A DNA stretch of 64,000 bases. Origin: Achromobacter dolens (GTDB lineage: Bacteria; Pseudomonadota; Gammaproteobacteria; Burkholderiales; Burkholderiaceae_B). The notes under the pieces are model-generated. The model searched no databases and was not told the origin of the DNA. It worked only from the letters and a program-made list of their open reading frames with translations. Shown piece by piece: positions 57,310-64,000 of the stretch (position 1 is the first letter of the stretch; each line of letters begins with the position of its first letter). The stretch is taken from assembly GCF_902859745.1 (NCBI RefSeq), contig NZ_CADIJW010000034.1, positions 1 through 64,000 on the forward strand, given 5' to 3'. Made by a program: the position numbers and the translations under genes.

Positions 57310-58014
57310 TCAGGCCGCCAGCGCGCGCCAGGTGCGCAGCAGCAGCGTCTCGATGTCGTGCACTGGCAGGCCGGTGGCGCGCGCCACGGCTTCGCGGTAG
57401 GGCGGCATGTTGGTGCATTCGAGCACGATGTCGGTCAGGTCCGGGGCGCGCCGCGCCAGCCGTTCGGCCGCCTCGACCACGTCGCGTTCGACCCGCGCCA
57501 GATCCATGTCCGGCGCGTTTTCCAGGATGCGCGCCTGCATCTCGCAACCGGGCGCCAGGCCTTCGACCACGGCGTTGGCGGGCACGCCGGCCGCGTCCAG
57601 CAAGGCGCGATCGAGCGAGGCCGCATCGAAGGTGACGATGCCCACCCGCGCCAGGCCATGGCATTGCAGCAGGCTGGACGACACGACTGGCACCGGCACT
57701 GCAGCCTGCAAGGCGTCCTGGTAGCGCGCCAGGAAACCGCAACTGGTGGAGATCAGCGCCGCGCCGTCGCGCGCCAGACCCACGGCGGCATCGATGAACG
57801 GCCGCAGGAAGGCCGGGTCGGCTTCCTGCACGATCTTGCGCGGCGAGGCGCCCGGCACCGTGACGAAGCGCGCCGGGATGCCGGCGCGGGCGTAGGTCTC
57901 GGGGTTGCCGACGTCGCCGGGCGGGCGCGGAAAGCGCGTGTCCAGCATCAGCAGGCCGAGAAAGGCGCCGGGGGCCGCGGGCGCGGCCGGGAGGGTTGCA
58001 TCGTTCGTGGCCAT
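57310..58014 (-). CDS. Aspartate/glutamate/hydantoin racemase family protein
   Basis: A 234-aa cofactor-independent racemase fold. The two catalytic Cys are seen, C92 in STSCGF and C200 in LECTNMPPY. Substrate may be aspartate, glutamate, hydantoin or a related malonate (maleate isomerase and arylmalonate decarboxylase share the fold). It is 27 nt downstream of a D-amino-acid dehydrogenase-like gene on the same strand, suggesting joint D/L amino-acid catabolism. Confidence 0.86.
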   Translation of the reverse strand: MATNDATLPAAPAAPGAFLGLLMLDTRFPRPPGDVGNPETYARAGIPARFVTVPGASPRKIVQEADPAFLRPFIDAAVGLARDGAALISTSCGFLARYQDALQAAVPVPVVSSSLLQCHGLARVGIVTFDAASLDRALLDAAGVPANAVVEGLAPGCEMQARILENAPDMDLARVERDVVEAAERLARRAPDLTDIVLECTNMPPYREAVARATGLPVHDIETLLLRTWRALAA

Positions 58015-58041
58015 GCGAGGCTCCCGTGAATGTCGATACGC

Positions 58042-59292
58042 CTAGAGGAATCGTCCCGGACGGAAGGCGTCGTGGCGGCCGGTGGCGTCGCCGTCGGTCA
58101 TCAATTCCCCTAGTATCTGCGCGGTGCCGGGCGCCGTGCTGAAACCGATGTGCTGGTGTCCCAGCGCCAGCCACAGGCCCGGATGGCGCGGCGCCTGGCC
58201 GATCATCGGGCGGCTGTCCGGCAGCGTCGGGCGGCGGCCGAGCCAGGCCCGCGGGTCCAGCCGCTCGCCCAGGTCGATGGCCTCGCGCGCCCGGGTTTCC
58301 GCCAGGTCCAACTGGATGGGACGGGCAGGCGCGTCGCAGTCGTCCAGCTCGACGCCGGTGGTCAGCCGCAGGCCGCGCGCCATCGGCGACAGCACGTAGC
58401 CGCCGCCGGTGTCGTAGATGGGGCGGCCCAGCGCCGGGCCGCCGGCGGCGCCGTAATGCATGTGATAGCCGCGCTCGAACGCCAGCGGCAGGTCGATGCC
58501 GGTGGTCTTGAGCAGGGCCTTGGACCACGGGCCCAGCGCCACCACCAGGTCGGGCGCCGTCAGCGTTTCCGTGCCGGCATCGCCTTGCACGATCCAGCCG
58601 CGTCCGCCATCGCGGCGGATGGCGGCGGCTTGCAGTGTGCGGAAGACGCCGCCCGAGCGCTGGAACAGGTCGGCGTAGGCCGTGGTCACGGCGCCGGGAT
58701 CGTCCACCGAATAGGACCCCTGGATCCACAGCGCGCGCGGGAAGATCGGCGCCAGGGCCGGCTCCAGTTGCGCCAGTTCGGCCGGGGCCAGCGCCTGGGT
58801 CGGCACCTGGTGGCGGGCGTAGGCCTGGCGCGCCAGGGCGCCGCCCTGCCACGCCTGTTCGCTGCGGAACAGGAAGATCCAGCCGCTGTCGCGCAGGCGG
58901 TGGCGCGCGCCGGCCGCGTCCAGCAGGCGCAGGTGTTCGGCGGCGGAGCGCCGGATCAGGCCGTCAAGCGCCGCCGTGGTTTCGCCGAACACCGACGGCC
59001 GGGCGCGCGCCAGGAAGCCCGCCGCCCAGCCCAGATTGCGGGCCAGGTACGCGGCGCGGTAGCGGAATTGGACGGTGTCGTTGCGCAGCAGCCGGGGCAA
59101 CTGGCGCCACAGGCCGTGATGGTTGAAGGGCATGAGGGAGCTGCGGGCCAGGACGCCGGCGTTGCCGGATGAGGTTTCCCGGCCGGGATCCTGGCGGTCG
59201 ACCAGGGTGACCTGCATGCCGCGCCGCTGCAGTTCCAGCGCGCAGCAGACGCCGACGATGCCGGCGCCGAGCACTATGACTTGCTTTCCCAT
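58042..59292 (-). CDS. FAD-dependent D-amino-acid dehydrogenase-like oxidoreductase (DadA family)
   Basis: A 416-aa DAO-family flavoprotein. The N-terminal FAD-binding motif is VLGAGIVGVCCALEL, followed by SSGNAGVLARSSLMPF, the DadA-type segment. The C-terminal region has GRRPTLPDSRPMIGQAPRH and GHQHIGFSTAPGTA. It oxidises a D-amino acid to a 2-keto acid, passing electrons to the respiratory chain. The ATG at 59292 starts MGKQVIVLG. Paired with the racemase gene. Confidence 0.9.
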   Translation of the reverse strand: MGKQVIVLGAGIVGVCCALELQRRGMQVTLVDRQDPGRETSSGNAGVLARSSLMPFNHHGLWRQLPRLLRNDTVQFRYRAAYLARNLGWAAGFLARARPSVFGETTAALDGLIRRSAAEHLRLLDAAGARHRLRDSGWIFLFRSEQAWQGGALARQAYARHQVPTQALAPAELAQLEPALAPIFPRALWIQGSYSVDDPGAVTTAYADLFQRSGGVFRTLQAAAIRRDGGRGWIVQGDAGTETLTAPDLVVALGPWSKALLKTTGIDLPLAFERGYHMHYGAAGGPALGRPIYDTGGGYVLSPMARGLRLTTGVELDDCDAPARPIQLDLAETRAREAIDLGERLDPRAWLGRRPTLPDSRPMIGQAPRHPGLWLALGHQHIGFSTAPGTAQILGELMTDGDATGRHDAFRPGRFL

Positions 59293-59436
59293 CGTCGCTG
59301 TCGCTGCTTGAGTCGGTATGGAACCAAGGGAGGTGAGCGGCCGATTGTAGGGCAGCAGGCGGGCGCCAGCGAGAGCGGGCAATCCATGATTGTGACGCCG
59401 CACCGGGCGGCCGCCAGGCGGGTGTGCCGGCGCCGG

Positions 59437-61074
59437 TCAGGCGGGCGGCCGTTGCCCCAGGATGCGGCCGGCCGCCGCCACGCCCCACCACGCGGCTTCT
59501 TCGAACACCGAATAGCCGGACAGGTCGGCATGGGCGAACAGCACCGGGCCGTCCACCTCGCGCAACGCCGCCAGGCCGGCGTTGGATAGATAGCCGCAAT
59601 AGGGCGAGGCCATGGCATGGCCGCGCACCGTGATCTCCAACTGCCGGGCGCGACGCCAGAACTCGTCGCCATAGGCGGCGACCAGATCGGCGGCGGCCTC
59701 GTCGCGCAGCGCCTCGGGGCGGGCGTCGGCGAGCCATTGCCGCGCGGCCTGCGGCGTCCGGTTGCTGAGGGCGTGATAGGCAGTGAACACCGTGCGCGGG
59801 GAACGCGCCACGCGCAGCAATTGGTGGGTCGAGACCACGTAGCCCAGGGCCTGGCCCTGGTAGACCACGTTGTCCCACGACAGCGGCTCGCCCGGCGCTT
59901 CGCGCGGATAGCCGTCCATGACGAAGTTCGACACCAGCCAGGGCGCGTGCGGCGACGCGTGCGTGACCGGATCGTAGCCGTAGGCGCGGATGTCGGGCAG
60001 CAGGCGCTGGGCCACGAACAGCGGCATGGCGCAGACCGCGCGTTGCGCTTGCAGCGTAAAGACGCGGGCGGCGGGCCCCGGCGCCAGGCAATCGATGCGC
60101 GGGCCGGCCGCGCTTTCCTGCAACCGCGCGGCGGTGCCGGGCAGCAGCCAGCCCTCATGGCCGAGACGGGCGCTGATGGCGTTGCGCAGCCGTTGCACCA
60201 GCGGCGCCAGGCCGCCGGGCCAGGTCAGCACGGCGCCCTCGGCGGCGTTGGCGGCATGGCCGTCGCGGCTGGCGAAGTAGTGCAGCCCGGCCCAGGCCGA
60301 GACCCGGTCGTAGGGCGCGCCGTAGTCGTCGCGGCAGCAGTAGTTCAGGTACCAGTGCAGGGCGGGGGAGGTGTAGCCTTCGCGGTCCAGCCACTGCTTG
60401 AATGTGAGCGCGTCCAGCGCCCGCCAGGCCGGGTCGCGCGAGGACAGCACGATGGGAATACAGAAGACCTTGCGGCCGTCGTTGCCGATCGCGCCGTGCA
60501 GCCGGTCCACCAGCGCCAGGAACTTGCGGTGCTGTTCGATATCGGCCTCGGGCAGCCCGTGCATCGTCAAGAGACCGTCTTCCCAGCGGCCGTCGCGCAG
60601 CAGCCGTTCCTGCGGCGAGTGCGCCAGGATGGCCTCGTCGTAATAGGGCCGCTCGCCGAAGGCGTCGCGCTCGGCGATGCCGAAATCGGCCAGCATCTCG
60701 CGCACGTGGGTGGACTGCATCGACGGCAGCGGCAGGTAGTGCGCGCCGAGCGGGTAGTCGAGCCCGTCGCGGGCGCCGGCGGCGGCATTGCCACCGTACT
60801 CGGGGCCCTGGACCACGACGAAATCGGTGAAGCCTTCGCGCGCCAGCTTCCAGGCGCACGACAGGCCGGCCACGCCGGACCCCAGGATCGCCACCTGGCA
60901 GCGCCGGGCGCCGGACGATGGCGGCAGCGCCGCGCCATCGCGCAGCGCATGGCCGGCCTGCATGCCCGGGTAGCGCACCTCGGGCGTGGTCTCGACCACG
61001 CGCGAACGGTAGTAGCCCGCCGTGCCGGCGGCGGCGGCGGTGGCGACGCCCAGCAGGAAGGTGCGGCGCCGCAT
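59437..61074 (-). CDS. Tat-exported FAD-dependent oxidoreductase (amine oxidase-like)
   Basis: A 545-aa flavoprotein. The N-terminus MRRRTFLLGVATAAAAGTAG is a twin-arginine-type signal, although it has the minimal RRRTFLL form. FAD-binding ILGSGVAGLSCAWKL follows at 63-77. A C-terminal FAD-closing segment is FAHADLSGYSVFEEAAWWG. The overall fold resembles amine oxidase/phytoene desaturase proteins; no exact enzyme is recognised. Its ATG overlaps the stop of the spermidine synthase gene (TGATG), so the two are translationally coupled. Polyamine or amine oxidation is inferred from that coupling only. Confidence 0.78.
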   Translation of the reverse strand: MRRRTFLLGVATAAAAGTAGYYRSRVVETTPEVRYPGMQAGHALRDGAALPPSSGARRCQVAILGSGVAGLSCAWKLAREGFTDFVVVQGPEYGGNAAAGARDGLDYPLGAHYLPLPSMQSTHVREMLADFGIAERDAFGERPYYDEAILAHSPQERLLRDGRWEDGLLTMHGLPEADIEQHRKFLALVDRLHGAIGNDGRKVFCIPIVLSSRDPAWRALDALTFKQWLDREGYTSPALHWYLNYCCRDDYGAPYDRVSAWAGLHYFASRDGHAANAAEGAVLTWPGGLAPLVQRLRNAISARLGHEGWLLPGTAARLQESAAGPRIDCLAPGPAARVFTLQAQRAVCAMPLFVAQRLLPDIRAYGYDPVTHASPHAPWLVSNFVMDGYPREAPGEPLSWDNVVYQGQALGYVVSTHQLLRVARSPRTVFTAYHALSNRTPQAARQWLADARPEALRDEAAADLVAAYGDEFWRRARQLEITVRGHAMASPYCGYLSNAGLAALREVDGPVLFAHADLSGYSVFEEAAWWGVAAAGRILGQRPPA

Positions 61075-62585
61075 CAGCGGATGACCTTGCGCCAGTCCTC
61101 GTCGAAGTACCGCACGAGCGATTGTTCGTTCAGGCGGTTCGGTGGCATGGCCAGCGCCGGCATGTCGGCGGGAAAGTGGAACAGCTCGCGCAGGGTGGCG
61201 GGGTCGAGGTAGCGGGTGGGCACGGTGACGGCGTCCGGCGGCGTATAGTCGCGGCGCTTGCCGGCCAGGATGAAGCCCCAGTCGCCGAACGACGGCACGT
61301 AGGCGTGGTACGGCCAGGTGTTCAGGCCGGCTTCCTTGAGCGTGGCGTCCACGCTCCAGAACGAGCGCGGCGCGAAGTAGGGCGAGGTCGACTGGATCAC
61401 CATGTAGCCGTTCTCGGCCAGGTGCCGCGCCATCAGGTGGTAGACCGGCACCGAGTACAGCCGGCCCAGGCCGAAGTTGGACGGATCCGGAAAGTCCACC
61501 ACGATGAAGTCGTAGACCTCGGCGTGGCTTTCGAGCCAGCGGCCGGCGTCGTCGTTGATGACGGTGACGCGCGGATCGGTCAGCGAGCCCTGGTTCAGCT
61601 TGGTCAGCGGCTCGGAGCGCGAGAACAGGCCGGTCATGGCCGGGTCCAGGTCCACCAGCGTGACGTGCTCAACGTGCTTGAATTTGAGGATTTCGCGCAC
61701 CGCCAGACCGTCGCCGCCGCCCAGCACCAGCACGTTGCGGGCCCAGGGCAGGGCCTGCAGGCCAGGGATCACCAACGACTCGTGGTAGCGGTGTTCGTCG
61801 CGTGACGAGAATTGCAGGTTGCCGTTGATGTACAGCCGCAGGTCGTCGTGCCAGCGCGTCACGATCAGGCGCTGGTAGGGCGTGGTCTCGGCGTGCACCA
61901 CGTCGTCGCCGTACAGGCCCTTCTCGGCCCAGGCCGTCATCTGGCCGGAAAACAGGAAGCCCAGCGCCAGCAGCCCCAGCACCACGCCGCCGCGTATGGC
62001 GCGTTCGGCAGGGCGCCGGATCTCGCCACGGAACAGCCAGGTGGTCCACAGCGCCACGCCGGCGTTGAGCATGCCGAACAGGAAACTGGTGCGCAGCAGG
62101 CCCAGCTTGGGCGCCAGCAGCAGCGGAAAGATCAGCGACACGGCCAGCGCGCCGAGATAATCGAAAGTCAGCACGCGGCTGACGATCTCGCGGAACTCGG
62201 CCTTGCGCTGGTTGAAGACGCGCATCACGAGCGGGATCTCCATGCCGACCATCAGTCCGATGATGAAGACGCCCGCGTACAGCGCCGCGCGAAACGGCGC
62301 CGACAGCCAGGCGAACACCAGGAACAGCACCGCGGCGGAAACCCCGCCCAACAAGGCGACGGCCAGTTCGACGTCGATGAATCGATTCAAAACGTCGTCG
62401 TCTCTTACATATTTTGACAACCACGATCCGATGCCCATCGCGAACAGATAGCAGCCGATGACGGACGAGAACTGGAGGATGGAATCGCCCAGCAAATAGC
62501 TGGCCAGCGCGCTGCTGATGAGCTCGTAGCCCAGGCCGCAGGAAGCGACGATCAATACCGACAGGATGAGGACGCGGTCGCGCAT
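61074..62585 (-). CDS. Membrane-bound spermidine synthase (polyamine aminopropyltransferase)
   Basis: A 503-aa protein: about seven hydrophobic segments in residues 1-215, then a soluble spermidine synthase domain (about 225-480). Catalytic-domain motifs are GNLQFSSRDEHRYHESL (substrate segment), VLVLGGGDGLAVRE (SAM-binding), and VVDFPDPSNFGLGRLYS (catalytic Asp). Unlike cytosolic SpeE (about 290 aa), it is fused to a membrane domain. The ATG at 62585 is used. It diverges from the DUF350 gene. Confidence 0.88.
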   Translation of the reverse strand: MRDRVLILSVLIVASCGLGYELISSALASYLLGDSILQFSSVIGCYLFAMGIGSWLSKYVRDDDVLNRFIDVELAVALLGGVSAAVLFLVFAWLSAPFRAALYAGVFIIGLMVGMEIPLVMRVFNQRKAEFREIVSRVLTFDYLGALAVSLIFPLLLAPKLGLLRTSFLFGMLNAGVALWTTWLFRGEIRRPAERAIRGGVVLGLLALGFLFSGQMTAWAEKGLYGDDVVHAETTPYQRLIVTRWHDDLRLYINGNLQFSSRDEHRYHESLVIPGLQALPWARNVLVLGGGDGLAVREILKFKHVEHVTLVDLDPAMTGLFSRSEPLTKLNQGSLTDPRVTVINDDAGRWLESHAEVYDFIVVDFPDPSNFGLGRLYSVPVYHLMARHLAENGYMVIQSTSPYFAPRSFWSVDATLKEAGLNTWPYHAYVPSFGDWGFILAGKRRDYTPPDAVTVPTRYLDPATLRELFHFPADMPALAMPPNRLNEQSLVRYFDEDWRKVIR

Positions 62586-62611
62586 GAGGGTTCCGACTCG
62601 AAAAATGCGTT

Positions 62612-62643
62612 CGCAGTATATCGAAGGCGGCGTATATACTGCG
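62612..62643. promoter_or_regulatory. Inverted repeat in the divergent promoter of the polyamine/DUF350 cassette
   Basis: Ten-bp arms, cgcagtatat (62612-62621) and atatactgcg (62634-62643), are separated by 12 bp. Each arm contains TATACT facing its own gene (plus 62635-62640; minus 62620-62615), so the element may be both the two -10 boxes and an operator. Confidence 0.65.
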
Positions 62644-62669
62644 CGCAATCAGGGCCTGGAGGGGCGATT

Positions 62670-63068
62670 ATGGGAGAAGCGATGCATCCGGCGGTGACCT
62701 ATCTGATCTACATTGTTTCGGCGCTGGTCATGCTGGGCATTTTCACCGCGGTCTACACCACGGTGACGCGCTACAAGGAATTCGAACTGATCCGCCAGGG
62801 CAACATTGCCGCGGTGCTCTCATACAGCGGCGCGCTGGTCGGTTTTTCGTTCACGCTCTGCTCCAGCATCGCCATCCATGCGAGCTTCGTCATGTTCCTG
62901 GTCTGGGGCGTGGCCGCCATGGTGGTGCAACTGGTCGTCTATGCCGTCGTGTCGCGCGCCATCCAGGGCCTGCACGAGGCCATCGAGGAAAACAACATCG
63001 CCATGGGCGGCCTGATCGGATCGATCTCGCTGGCCGCCGGCGTGGTCAACGCCGCCTGCCTGACCTGA
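62670..63068 (+). CDS. DUF350 family membrane protein (YjfL-like)
   Basis: A 132-aa inner-membrane protein with four hydrophobic segments, in the DUF350 pattern (LVGFSFTLCSSIAIHASFVMFLVWG and GLIGSISLAAGVVNAACL). Starts at 62670 (with GGAGGGG upstream) or at 62682 (MHPAV). Function unknown; related YjfL lies in an operon with a PspA-like protein and a glutathionylspermidine synthase-like ATP-grasp. It begins the rightward half of the cassette and precedes an SPFH gene by 44 nt. Confidence 0.85.
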   Translation: MGEAMHPAVTYLIYIVSALVMLGIFTAVYTTVTRYKEFELIRQGNIAAVLSYSGALVGFSFTLCSSIAIHASFVMFLVWGVAAMVVQLVVYAVVSRAIQGLHEAIEENNIAMGGLIGSISLAAGVVNAACLT

Positions 63069-63112
63069 GCGGCCGCGCGCGTCGACCCATCTCTGACACA
63101 GGAGAACTAGCC

Positions 63113-64000
63113 ATGAGTCTCGGTTCATTTATCCGCAAACAGTTCATCGACATCCTGCAATGGAACGAGGACGGCGACGGCGTGCTGGCCTGGCGTCATC
63201 CGATGCAGGATTTCGAAATCCAGTACGGCGCCAGCCTGACCGTGCGCGAGTCGCAGATGGCGGTGTTCGTCAACGAAGGCAAGGTGGCCGACGTGTTCGG
63301 CCCCGGCATGTACAAGCTGACCACCCAGACGCTGCCGGTGCTGACGTACCTGAAGAACTGGGACAAGCTGTTCGAGTCGCCCTTCAAGTCGGACGTGATC
63401 TTCTTCAGCACCCGTCTGCAACTGGGCCGGCGCTGGGGCACGGCGCAGCCGGTGACGCTGCGCGACAGCGAATTCGGCATGGTGCGGCTGCGCGCCTTCG
63501 GCGTGTATTCGTACCAGATCACCGATCCGGCCAAGTTCTACCGCGAGATCAGCGGCACGCGCGACGTCTACACCGTCGATGACCTGGAAGCGCAGTTGCG
63601 CAACATGGTGGTCGCGGCCATGACCACCGCGCTGGGCGGCTCCAAGGTGCCGTTCCTGGACATCGCCGGCAACCAGGGCCTGATGTCGCAGAGCATCGGC
63701 GAGCAGCTCGGCCCGGTGTTCGAGCGCTATGGCGTCAAGCTCGACAACTTCACGGTCGAGAACGTGTCGCTGCCGGAAGAACTGCAAAAGGCGCTGGACA
63801 CGCGGATCTCGATGGGCATGGCGGGCGACCTGGGCAAGTTCACCCAGTACCAGACCGCCACCTCGATCCCGCTGGCGGCGCAGAACGAAGGCGGCATCGC
63901 CGGCATCGGCGCGGGCCTGGCGGCCGGCGCGGCGCTGGGCCAGACCATGGCGGCCGGACTGGGCGCGGCCGCGGGGCAACCGGCGGCGGGCGCCCAGGCG
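63113..64000 (+). CDS. SPFH/Band 7 domain protein, partial (runs off window)
   Basis: 296 codons open to the window edge. The N-terminal part matches the YdjI/virion-core type of SPFH protein: QWNEDGDGVLAWRHPMQD, VRESQMAVFVNEGKVADVFGPG (SPFH start), RAFGVYSYQITDP and DLEAQLRNMVVAAM, followed by a helical stretch (LPEELQKALDTRISMG) and a Gly/Ala-rich linker. Members of this type usually end in a zinc ribbon, expected beyond 64000. SPFH proteins form membrane-associated scaffolds. GGAGAA lies 7 nt before the ATG at 63113. Confidence 0.85.
   Translation, partial: MSLGSFIRKQFIDILQWNEDGDGVLAWRHPMQDFEIQYGASLTVRESQMAVFVNEGKVADVFGPGMYKLTTQTLPVLTYLKNWDKLFESPFKSDVIFFSTRLQLGRRWGTAQPVTLRDSEFGMVRLRAFGVYSYQITDPAKFYREISGTRDVYTVDDLEAQLRNMVVAAMTTALGGSKVPFLDIAGNQGLMSQSIGEQLGPVFERYGVKLDNFTVENVSLPEELQKALDTRISMGMAGDLGKFTQYQTATSIPLAAQNEGGIAGIGAGLAAGAALGQTMAAGLGAAAGQPAAGAQA

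What the first reader, a model, noticed from the sequence alone, without database searches (positions are those of the whole stretch)
59437..64000. Divergent polyamine/FAD/DUF350/SPFH cassette: candidate uncharacterised membrane system
Seen: a Tat-signal FAD oxidoreductase, translationally coupled to a membrane-fused spermidine synthase, faces a DUF350 membrane protein and an SPFH scaffold, with one inverted-repeat promoter between them. Known: DUF350 (YjfL) occurs in E. coli yjfIJKLMC with a PspA-like protein and a glutathionylspermidine synthase-like ATP-grasp, linking the family to membrane stress and polyamines. Inference: this cassette may make or oxidise a polyamine at the inner membrane as part of an envelope-stress response, with SPFH in place of PspA. 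The cassette continues beyond the window.
Basis: partly seen in the sequence, partly recalled or inferred. Interest (0 to 1): 0.75.

Follow-up and report, generated by a model that had tools for sequence, protein, structure and literature searches.

The report
Membrane aminopropyl-transfer gene cassette, unknown product
A conserved set of about six bacterial genes, only partly inside this window, appears to use the polyamine-building donor molecule at the cell membrane to modify something still unknown, and it gives a concrete handle on a puzzle that earlier work had raised but not solved.

Summary
At 59437-64000 a twin-arginine FAD oxidoreductase (FADox) overlaps a membrane spermidine-synthase-like protein (SpdS) by one base, and both face DUF350 and an SPFH protein across a 32-bp inverted repeat. 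The contig ends at 64000. The unit is real: 76 of 76 loci holding both halves (among the best 80 of at least 574 FADox relatives) keep the divergent order, and in 150 genomes of the order all 24 with this SpdS have FADox. The kind of cluster (AdoMetDC, membrane SpdSyn, DUF350, sometimes band-7) is already in print; the Tat flavoenzyme as constant partner in this clade and the divergent SPFH layout were not in the passages I read. Catalytic residues are conserved in 64 sequences, and the positive-inside rule on a seven-helix model puts the transferase domain on the periplasmic side, beside FADox. I think it is a dedicated aminopropyl-transfer system at the envelope, not bulk spermidine supply. 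The envelope-stress role is unproven.

The parts
59437..61074 (-). FADox: twin-arginine flavoenzyme, 545 aa, flavin amine oxidase fold
61074..62585 (-). SpdS: seven-helix membrane domain fused to an aminopropyltransferase domain, 503 aa from the likelier start (ORF listed to 62648)
   Evidence: NF002956 697.9 bits over cut-off 472; Spermine_synth 110.1 bits; model pLDDT 86.7 with seven long helices; catalytic residues conserved in 64 sequences
62612..62643 (.). perfect 10-bp inverted repeat with 12-base spacer, putative operator or divergent promoter, seen only in Achromobacter
   Evidence: no sigma-70 match
62670..63068 (+). DUF350 (YjfL-type) membrane protein, 132 aa
   Evidence: PF03994 107.2 bits; alignment A5
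63113..64000 (+). SPFH/Band_7_1 protein, cut by the contig end; a matching tail lies at the start of contig C61 (L055:1-162)
   Evidence: PF13421 252.8 bits; SHOCT 30.0 bits over cut-off 27 in the complete relative L032

Best explanation
The cassette is a dedicated aminopropyl-transfer system of the inner membrane. Step 1 (well supported by family and genome counts, not by assay): SpeD, a class 1b AdoMet decarboxylase and the only one found in the genome, makes decarboxylated AdoMet. Step 2 (inferred from the intact active site): the seven-helix SpdS transfers the aminopropyl group to an amine acceptor at the membrane; the acceptor is unknown. Step 3 (inferred): the Tat-exported flavoenzyme FADox, made in step with SpdS, oxidises the product or a related amine on the periplasmic side. 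Step 4 (inferred): DUF350 forms a membrane part, and the SPFH-SHOCT and zinc-ribbon DUF4178 proteins hold the complex together at the membrane. Predicted topology puts the SpdS catalytic domain on the same periplasmic side as FADox; if right, the seven-helix domain must bring donor or acceptor across.
For: Unit conserved: of the 80 kept loci of the genome-contig scan, SpdS 79, DUF350 76, SPFH 76, DUF4178 72, SpeD 68; eight of the loci with misses are cut by a contig end; divergent order in 76 of 76 loci with both halves. FADox present in 24 of 24 SpdS genomes among 150 of the order, own genome included (21 within 60 nt), hypergeometric 6e-27. One AdoMetDC in own genome; 40 of 41 genus genomes have AdoMetDC, 39 of the 40 exactly one, 34 of the 40 on the same contig as SpdS within about 5 kb. 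SpeD is over TIGR03330's cut-off, 118.2 vs 75.65. SpdS: of 15 catalytic-domain positions checked, 13 are invariant in 64 sequences, the other two are D312 (D 56, E 8) and A347 (A 63, G 1). In the membrane domain E21, D34, E116, R122, D142 and Y143 are invariant in 64 of 64, more than an anchor needs; E73, R99 and R165 are not. K+R averages 10.7 on N-terminal-side loops vs 3.8 on the other side, N-in in 64 of 64.
Against: No product, substrate or phenotype is known. Active-site positions, including those recalled as the putrescine pocket, are kept, which fits plain spermidine synthesis too. Decarboxylated AdoMet is cytosolic as far as I know, so a periplasmic catalytic domain is odd; one mispredicted helix would turn it inside. 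FADox is not universal: of 19 near-full-length SpdS genomes in a 249-genome phylum sample 8 have it (only the top 5 first-look candidates per genome were scored for FADox). In two of those eight (G245, G263) no other cassette gene was found in the 19 kb fetched. FADox and SpdS lie apart in G301, G342 and G375. SpeD is not near in Stenotrophomonas (L069) and Lysobacter (L076). The inverted repeat is confined to Achromobacter. Relatedness of species inflates the counts; the 80 loci are the best 80 of at least 574.
Confidence: 0.5

Rival explanations
1. Ordinary polyamine synthesis: SpdS makes spermidine from putrescine for the cell, and FADox only degrades excess; the membrane genes are passengers.
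For: NCBIfam files SpdS as an equivalog 'polyamine aminopropyltransferase' over its cut-off; the checked catalytic positions are conserved; the only other Spermine_synth hit in the genome, on C100, has GGGSL in place of GGGDG and is below its family cut-off, 218.6 vs 304, so SpdS may be the sole enzyme of this type.
Against: Membrane fusion with invariant charged residues in the membrane domain; constant partnership with a Tat flavoenzyme in the order sample; conserved linkage to DUF350, SPFH and DUF4178. Recalled, not read: Li et al. 2019 reported that such fusions do not complement a spermidine-synthase mutant and that spermidine is absent in hosts.
Confidence: 0.25
2. One reading: an envelope-stress response of PSP type, with SPFH replacing PspA and polyamine chemistry as output.
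For: Published operons join PspA, DUF350, DUF4178 and membrane spermidine synthase, and one variant replaces the PspA dyad by band-7 with SHOCT plus AdoMetDC and polyamine oxidase (PMC11237479, passages). The complete relative L032 of our SPFH carries SHOCT.
Against: No PspA, sensor or regulator among the cassette proteins scanned; six of the eleven second-type loci of the order have no SPFH hit beside them; no expression data.
Confidence: 0.2
3. Two unrelated neighbouring operons that merely face each other.
For: The divergent spacer and its repeat are not conserved outside Achromobacter; FADox lies apart from SpdS in G301, G342 and G375; in G245 and G263 only FADox and SpdS were found.
Against: 76 of 76 loci keep both halves side by side; in a second layout the genes run in one direction in one row (SPFH when present, DUF4178, short DUF350, SpdS, FADox, in some SpeD); distances of the six proteins correlate 0.80-0.95 over 65 loci, species tree not removed.
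Confidence: 0.03

Closest known systems
AdoMetDC / membrane-fused spermidine-synthase / DUF350 gene clusters (Li et al. 2019, Biochem J 476:2579; not held; content recalled, title seen in reference lists)
   Same: Same three proteins as I recall: AdoMetDC, N-terminal membrane domain fused to a SpdSyn domain, DUF350.
   Different: Here a Tat flavoenzyme, SPFH-SHOCT and DUF4178 belong to the unit and the layout is divergent; I cannot say whether that paper lists them.
PspA operon group 2 of Ravi et al. 2024 (PMC11237479, passages): CesT/Tir-PspA, 7TM-spermidine synthase, DUF350, DUF4178, lipoprotein
   Same: 7TM-SpdSyn, DUF350, DUF4178.
   Different: No PspA pair among the proteins scanned; SPFH present; FADox and AdoMetDC in the unit.
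Band-7/SHOCT variant of group 3 in the same paper: band-7 with 2TM and SHOCT, AdoMetDC, polyamine oxidase
   Same: Band-7 with SHOCT, AdoMetDC, a flavoenzyme of amine-oxidase type.
   Different: That group is built on a glutathionylspermidine-synthetase-like ATP-grasp, not found in the cassette; in our SPFH Pfam shows nothing between the SPFH part and SHOCT.
E. coli yjfIJKLMC
   Same: DUF350.
   Different: No SpdSyn fusion, AdoMetDC or FADox there as far as I recall; no ATP-grasp found here.

Membership tests
Membrane polyamine aminopropyltransferase (NF002956) | score over curated cut-off | tested here: met
   697.9 vs 472 bits
Membrane polyamine aminopropyltransferase (NF002956) | intact aminopropyltransferase active site | tested here: met
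   Y267, H268, D292, D314, D346, D364, D367, Q398, Y426, W436 invariant in 64 of 64; roles of the residues recalled
Membrane polyamine aminopropyltransferase (NF002956) | uses putrescine | not testable with these tools
   needs an enzyme assay
AdoMetDC + membrane SpdSyn + DUF350 cluster (Li et al. 2019, recalled) | all three genes linked | tested here: met
   in the window's own assembly the link crosses a contig break
Phage-shock (PspA) operon | PspA/YjfJ-family gene in the operon | tested here: not met
   no PspA match in the cassette proteins scanned with Pfam; the rest of the genome was not searched for PspA
Glutathionylspermidine-synthetase-type DUF350 operon | ATP-grasp/GSP_synth gene in the operon | tested here: not met
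   no such match among the cassette proteins scanned; GSP_synth does sit beside the DUF350 of G035, where no SpdS or FADox was found
Flavin-containing amine oxidase (PF01593) | Pfam score over cut-off | tested here: met
   22.3 vs 19.8 bits, weak
Flavin-containing amine oxidase (PF01593) | nearest solved fold is an amine or polyamine oxidase | tested here: inconclusive
Flavin-containing amine oxidase (PF01593) | lysine next to flavin N5 (recalled feature) | tested here: inconclusive
   no lysine among the invariant or nearly invariant columns of 31 sequences; the position itself was matched by eye only
Hydroxysqualene dehydroxylase HpnE (TIGR03467) | score over cut-off | tested here: not met
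   43.2 vs 283.05 bits
Tat substrate | twin-arginine motif at the N-terminus | tested here: met
   79 of 80 loci; 19 with a lipobox-like Cys; export itself not tested

The most novel reading that the evidence does not exclude
SpdS is a transporter-transferase: its seven-helix domain carries decarboxylated AdoMet (or the acceptor) across the inner membrane, aminopropylation happens on the periplasmic face, and the Tat-exported flavoenzyme then oxidises the new amine, so that an envelope component is modified outside the cytoplasm by polyamine chemistry.
Probability: 0.28. Interest if true: 0.82.

Novelty: new variant of a known kind. Interest (0 to 1): 0.6.

Why it matters
What membrane-fused spermidine synthases and their private AdoMet decarboxylases are for is an open question. 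This clade gives a small, strongly conserved gene set, names a second enzyme (FADox) that should act on the product or a related amine, and predicts a side of the membrane, all of which can be tested directly. In the window's genus SpdS is in 41 of 41 genomes searched, so the chemistry is probably a regular part of the envelope there.

Tried and rejected
Chance neighbourhood of four genes: rejected by conservation and by two layouts. Conserved divergent promoter: only Achromobacter loci keep the repeat. A regulon of the repeat: one exact site in the genome, so no partner gene. PspA swap: of the six second-type loci without an SPFH hit (L151, L152, L154, L161, L162, L163) I read the neighbours of L152 and L154 only, by eye, and saw no PspA-like gene. 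Specific function of FADox from fold: too many tied families. The fold search of the SpdS model shows soluble aminopropyltransferases in all 50 rows printed, so it says nothing on the membrane domain. Cysteine poverty of the SpdS catalytic domain (mean 0.41; none in 42 of 64) fits a periplasmic place but had no control. The small Ser/Gly-rich frame after DUF4178 was matched in only 11 of 80 loci by a one-sequence profile, so I do not count it as a core gene. A SHOCT-like tail by a simple expression was seen in 48 of 72 SPFH proteins. DUF350 papers: 35 hold the term as a word start; the two Pseudomonas papers opened hold DUF3509. One search listed three papers with DUF350 and spermidine synthase: PMC11237479 (passages read), PMC12730115 (DUF3509) and PMC8416521, which I did not open. 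For Rv2601, which I recall as a relative of SpdS, I read passages of one paper (PMC11841054), which only names it.
Full report
WHAT IS THERE. The four genes exist as described. FADox (59437-61074, minus) and SpdS (minus, likely start 62585) overlap by one base. DUF350 (62670-63068, plus) and the SPFH protein (63113 onward, plus) face them. Families by Pfam: Amino_oxidase and NAD_binding_8 for FADox, Spermine_synth for SpdS, DUF350, Band_7_1. The contig, as held, stops at 64000. Searching the same genome for AdoMet decarboxylase gave one hit, 1.8 kb from the start of contig C61. That contig begins with an SPFH-type tail, followed by a 489-aa DUF4178 protein with zinc-ribbon cysteines, a 56-aa Ser/Gly-rich frame, SpeD, and then a ModA-like gene. 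SpeD scores 118.2 bits against TIGR03330, cut-off 75.65.

IS IT A UNIT. In the genus, 24 of 24 other genomes have the DUF350 gene. Of 20 longer stretches fetched around DUF350 (17 same genus, 3 others of the order), 19 hold FADox, SpdS, DUF350 and SPFH together; the exception, L047 from G035, has DUF350 beside a GSP_synth gene. Of these 80: SpdS 79, DUF350 76, SPFH 76, DUF4178 72, SpeD 68. The four loci without DUF350 and SPFH (L064, L105, L128, L131) begin at a contig end, as do the further four without DUF4178 (L058, L059, L063, L087). The other four without SpeD are L069 (Stenotrophomonas) and L076 (Lysobacter), with over 5 kb beyond DUF4178 examined, and L117 and L124, where DUF4178 lies 1.1 and 3.1 kb from the edge of the fetched flank. 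All 76 loci with both halves are divergent. Record titles include Achromobacter, Bordetella, Burkholderia, Cupriavidus, Ralstonia, Duganella, Massilia, Janthinobacterium, Zoogloea, Vogesella, Stenotrophomonas and Lysobacter. This sample is biased to close relatives of the query, and related species are not independent.

WIDER SURVEYS. Among 150 genomes drawn evenly from the order (own genome included), SpdS (E <= 1e-60) is in 24, FADox (E <= 1e-20) in 25, DUF350 of this profile in 25. The 24 SpdS genomes all have FADox; the 25th FADox hit (G299) is a 67-residue match. In 21 of 24 the two are within 60 nt; in G301 and G342 they are on different contigs (in G301 well inside both), in G375 18 kb apart. 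Thirteen of the 24 have full-length DUF350 on the SpdS contig within about 3 kb. The other 11 form a second type. In 10 of them DUF4178, SpdS and FADox run in one direction in one row; G375 has DUF350-SPFH-DUF4178, SpdS and FADox in three pieces. Among these 11 a short DUF350 match lies between DUF4178 and SpdS in 7, none was found in 3, and G375 has a full one 21 kb away; SPFH is beside the genes in 4, in the separate piece in G375, and gave no hit in 6. One of the short DUF350 proteins (L155, 70 aa) was confirmed by Pfam. Twelve DUF350 genomes are outside the main type (G375 plus 11 without SpdS at that threshold); in 4 of the 6 of these fetched (L166, L168, L169, L170) DUF350 sits with SpeD and a weaker SpdSyn match.

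In a phylum sample of 249 genomes, SpdS (E <= 1e-50) is in 28, of which 19 match over nearly the whole length; FADox is in 8, all among the 19 and within about 5 kb of SpdS (the tool scored only the best 5 first-look FADox candidates per genome). Of the 11 near-full-length SpdS genomes without FADox, 9 have a DUF350 match in the fetched stretch. Of the 7 FADox genomes other than our own, DUF4178 was found in 5, SPFH in 3 and a short DUF350 in 3; in G245 and G263 nothing but FADox and SpdS was found in 19 kb. So outside the close clade the pair FADox-SpdS is the firm link, and the membrane genes come and go; short DUF350 genes can be missed by this profile.

DEDICATED DONOR. AdoMetDC is in 40 of 41 genus genomes searched; the one without (G422) is 57% complete. 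Thirty-nine of the 40 have one copy, G017 two. In 34 of 40 it lies on the SpdS contig within about 5 kb; in 6 (G000, G008, G019, G414, G417, G425) it is on another contig, in five of them 1.8-2.0 kb from a contig start. The other aminopropyltransferase-like gene in the window's genome (C100) scores below its family's cut-off and has GGGSL for GGGDG.

HOW SpdS MAY WORK. The AlphaFold model (32 sequences, mean pLDDT 86.7, pTM 0.76) has seven long helices and then a spermidine-synthase domain; the 50 best Foldseek rows are soluble aminopropyltransferases. Over 64 sequences, including distant ones, 13 of 15 checked catalytic-domain positions are invariant (exceptions D312, D 56 and E 8; A347, A 63 and G 1), and E21, D34, E116, R122, D142 and Y143 in the membrane domain are invariant, while E73, R99 and R165 vary. 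Loops on the N-terminal side carry on average 10.7 Lys+Arg, loops on the other side 3.8; all 64 sequences agree. Helix 7 is as hydrophobic as the others (best 17-residue mean 2.02, minimum 1.45). With an odd number of helices the catalytic domain would be periplasmic. This is a prediction by rule of thumb, and it is surprising because the donor is cytosolic; I weigh it at a little over one in four.

FADox AND THE REST. The twin-arginine motif is in 79 of 80 homologues, 19 with a lipobox-like cysteine. The model (pLDDT 89.7) has the flavin amine oxidase fold; putrescine oxidase tops the list, but an L-amino acid oxidase, phytoene desaturase, monoamine oxidases, protoporphyrinogen oxidases and spermidine dehydrogenase SpdH are close behind. 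So oxidation of an amine is a fair guess and no more. Tat export and the predicted SpdS topology agree on one side of the membrane. DUF4178 proteins over 420 aa have four or more CxxC pairs in 71 of 71 and a C-terminal hydrophobic stretch in 69 of 71, which fits a membrane-bound zinc-ribbon protein.

REGULATION. A perfect inverted repeat (CGCAGTATAT, 12, ATATACTGCG) lies between the halves. It is kept in the 17 sequences aligned, one with altered arms, occurs once in the genome, is absent from 68 of 76 divergent loci, among them Achromobacter aloeverae, Achromobacter sp. HZ34 and a Bordetella, and shows no sigma-70 site.

WHAT IS KNOWN. Ravi et al. 2024 (PMC11237479; passages) describe PspA operons with 7TM-spermidine synthase, DUF350 and DUF4178, and a band-7/SHOCT variant with AdoMetDC and polyamine oxidase in the ATP-grasp group, and propose that polyamine level or aminopropylation of other substrates is linked to membrane dynamics. 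Li et al. 2019 (not held; recalled) described AdoMetDC with membrane-fused SpdSyn and DUF350 and argued for a role outside polyamine synthesis. What I did not find in the passages read is the Tat flavoenzyme as constant partner in this clade, the divergent SPFH layout, and the periplasmic prediction; absence from an open-access library is weak evidence.

VERDICT. A real, conserved, partly described system of unknown product: new variant of a known kind. Interest 0.6, because it turns an open question into specific tests.

Noticed in passing
window 57310-59403 (-): A D-amino-acid-dehydrogenase-like gene (58042-59403), 33 bases downstream of FADox, and an Asp/Glu-racemase-family gene (57310-58014). 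A homologue of the former was found beside FADox in 16 of the 17 same-genus stretches; none was found in L044, L045 or L046, so it is not part of the cassette.
   Followed up: partly
L055:2270-3766 (contig C61): Genes that look by eye like molybdate transport (ModA, ModB) follow SpeD; a ModA-like frame also follows in L032.
   Followed up: no
G000:C34 end and C61 start; also G008, G414, G417, G425: Several genus assemblies have SpeD 1.8-2.0 kb from a contig start, as if all break at about the same point, the Ala/Gly-rich SPFH tail; loci L058, L059 and L063 also end inside SPFH.
   Followed up: partly
L164:8230-11167 (G384): About 3 kb, including what looks by eye like a flagellin gene, lies between the two divergent halves, which still stay together.
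   Followed up: no
G375:C40:243422-286361: The cassette is split into three pieces over 43 kb: DUF350-SPFH-DUF4178, SpdS, FADox.
   Followed up: no
G320:C1:1298526-1300220: FADox matches in two separate pieces side by side, suggesting a broken gene or a sequencing error.
   Followed up: no
G017:C1:3760551-3760892: A second, more distant AdoMet decarboxylase (82.7 bits), the only extra copy among 41 genus genomes.
   Followed up: no
L155:11374-11589 and similar loci: A short DUF350 protein (about 70 aa) matches only the first half of the Pfam model; the full protein looks like two repeats of that unit by eye.
   Followed up: partly
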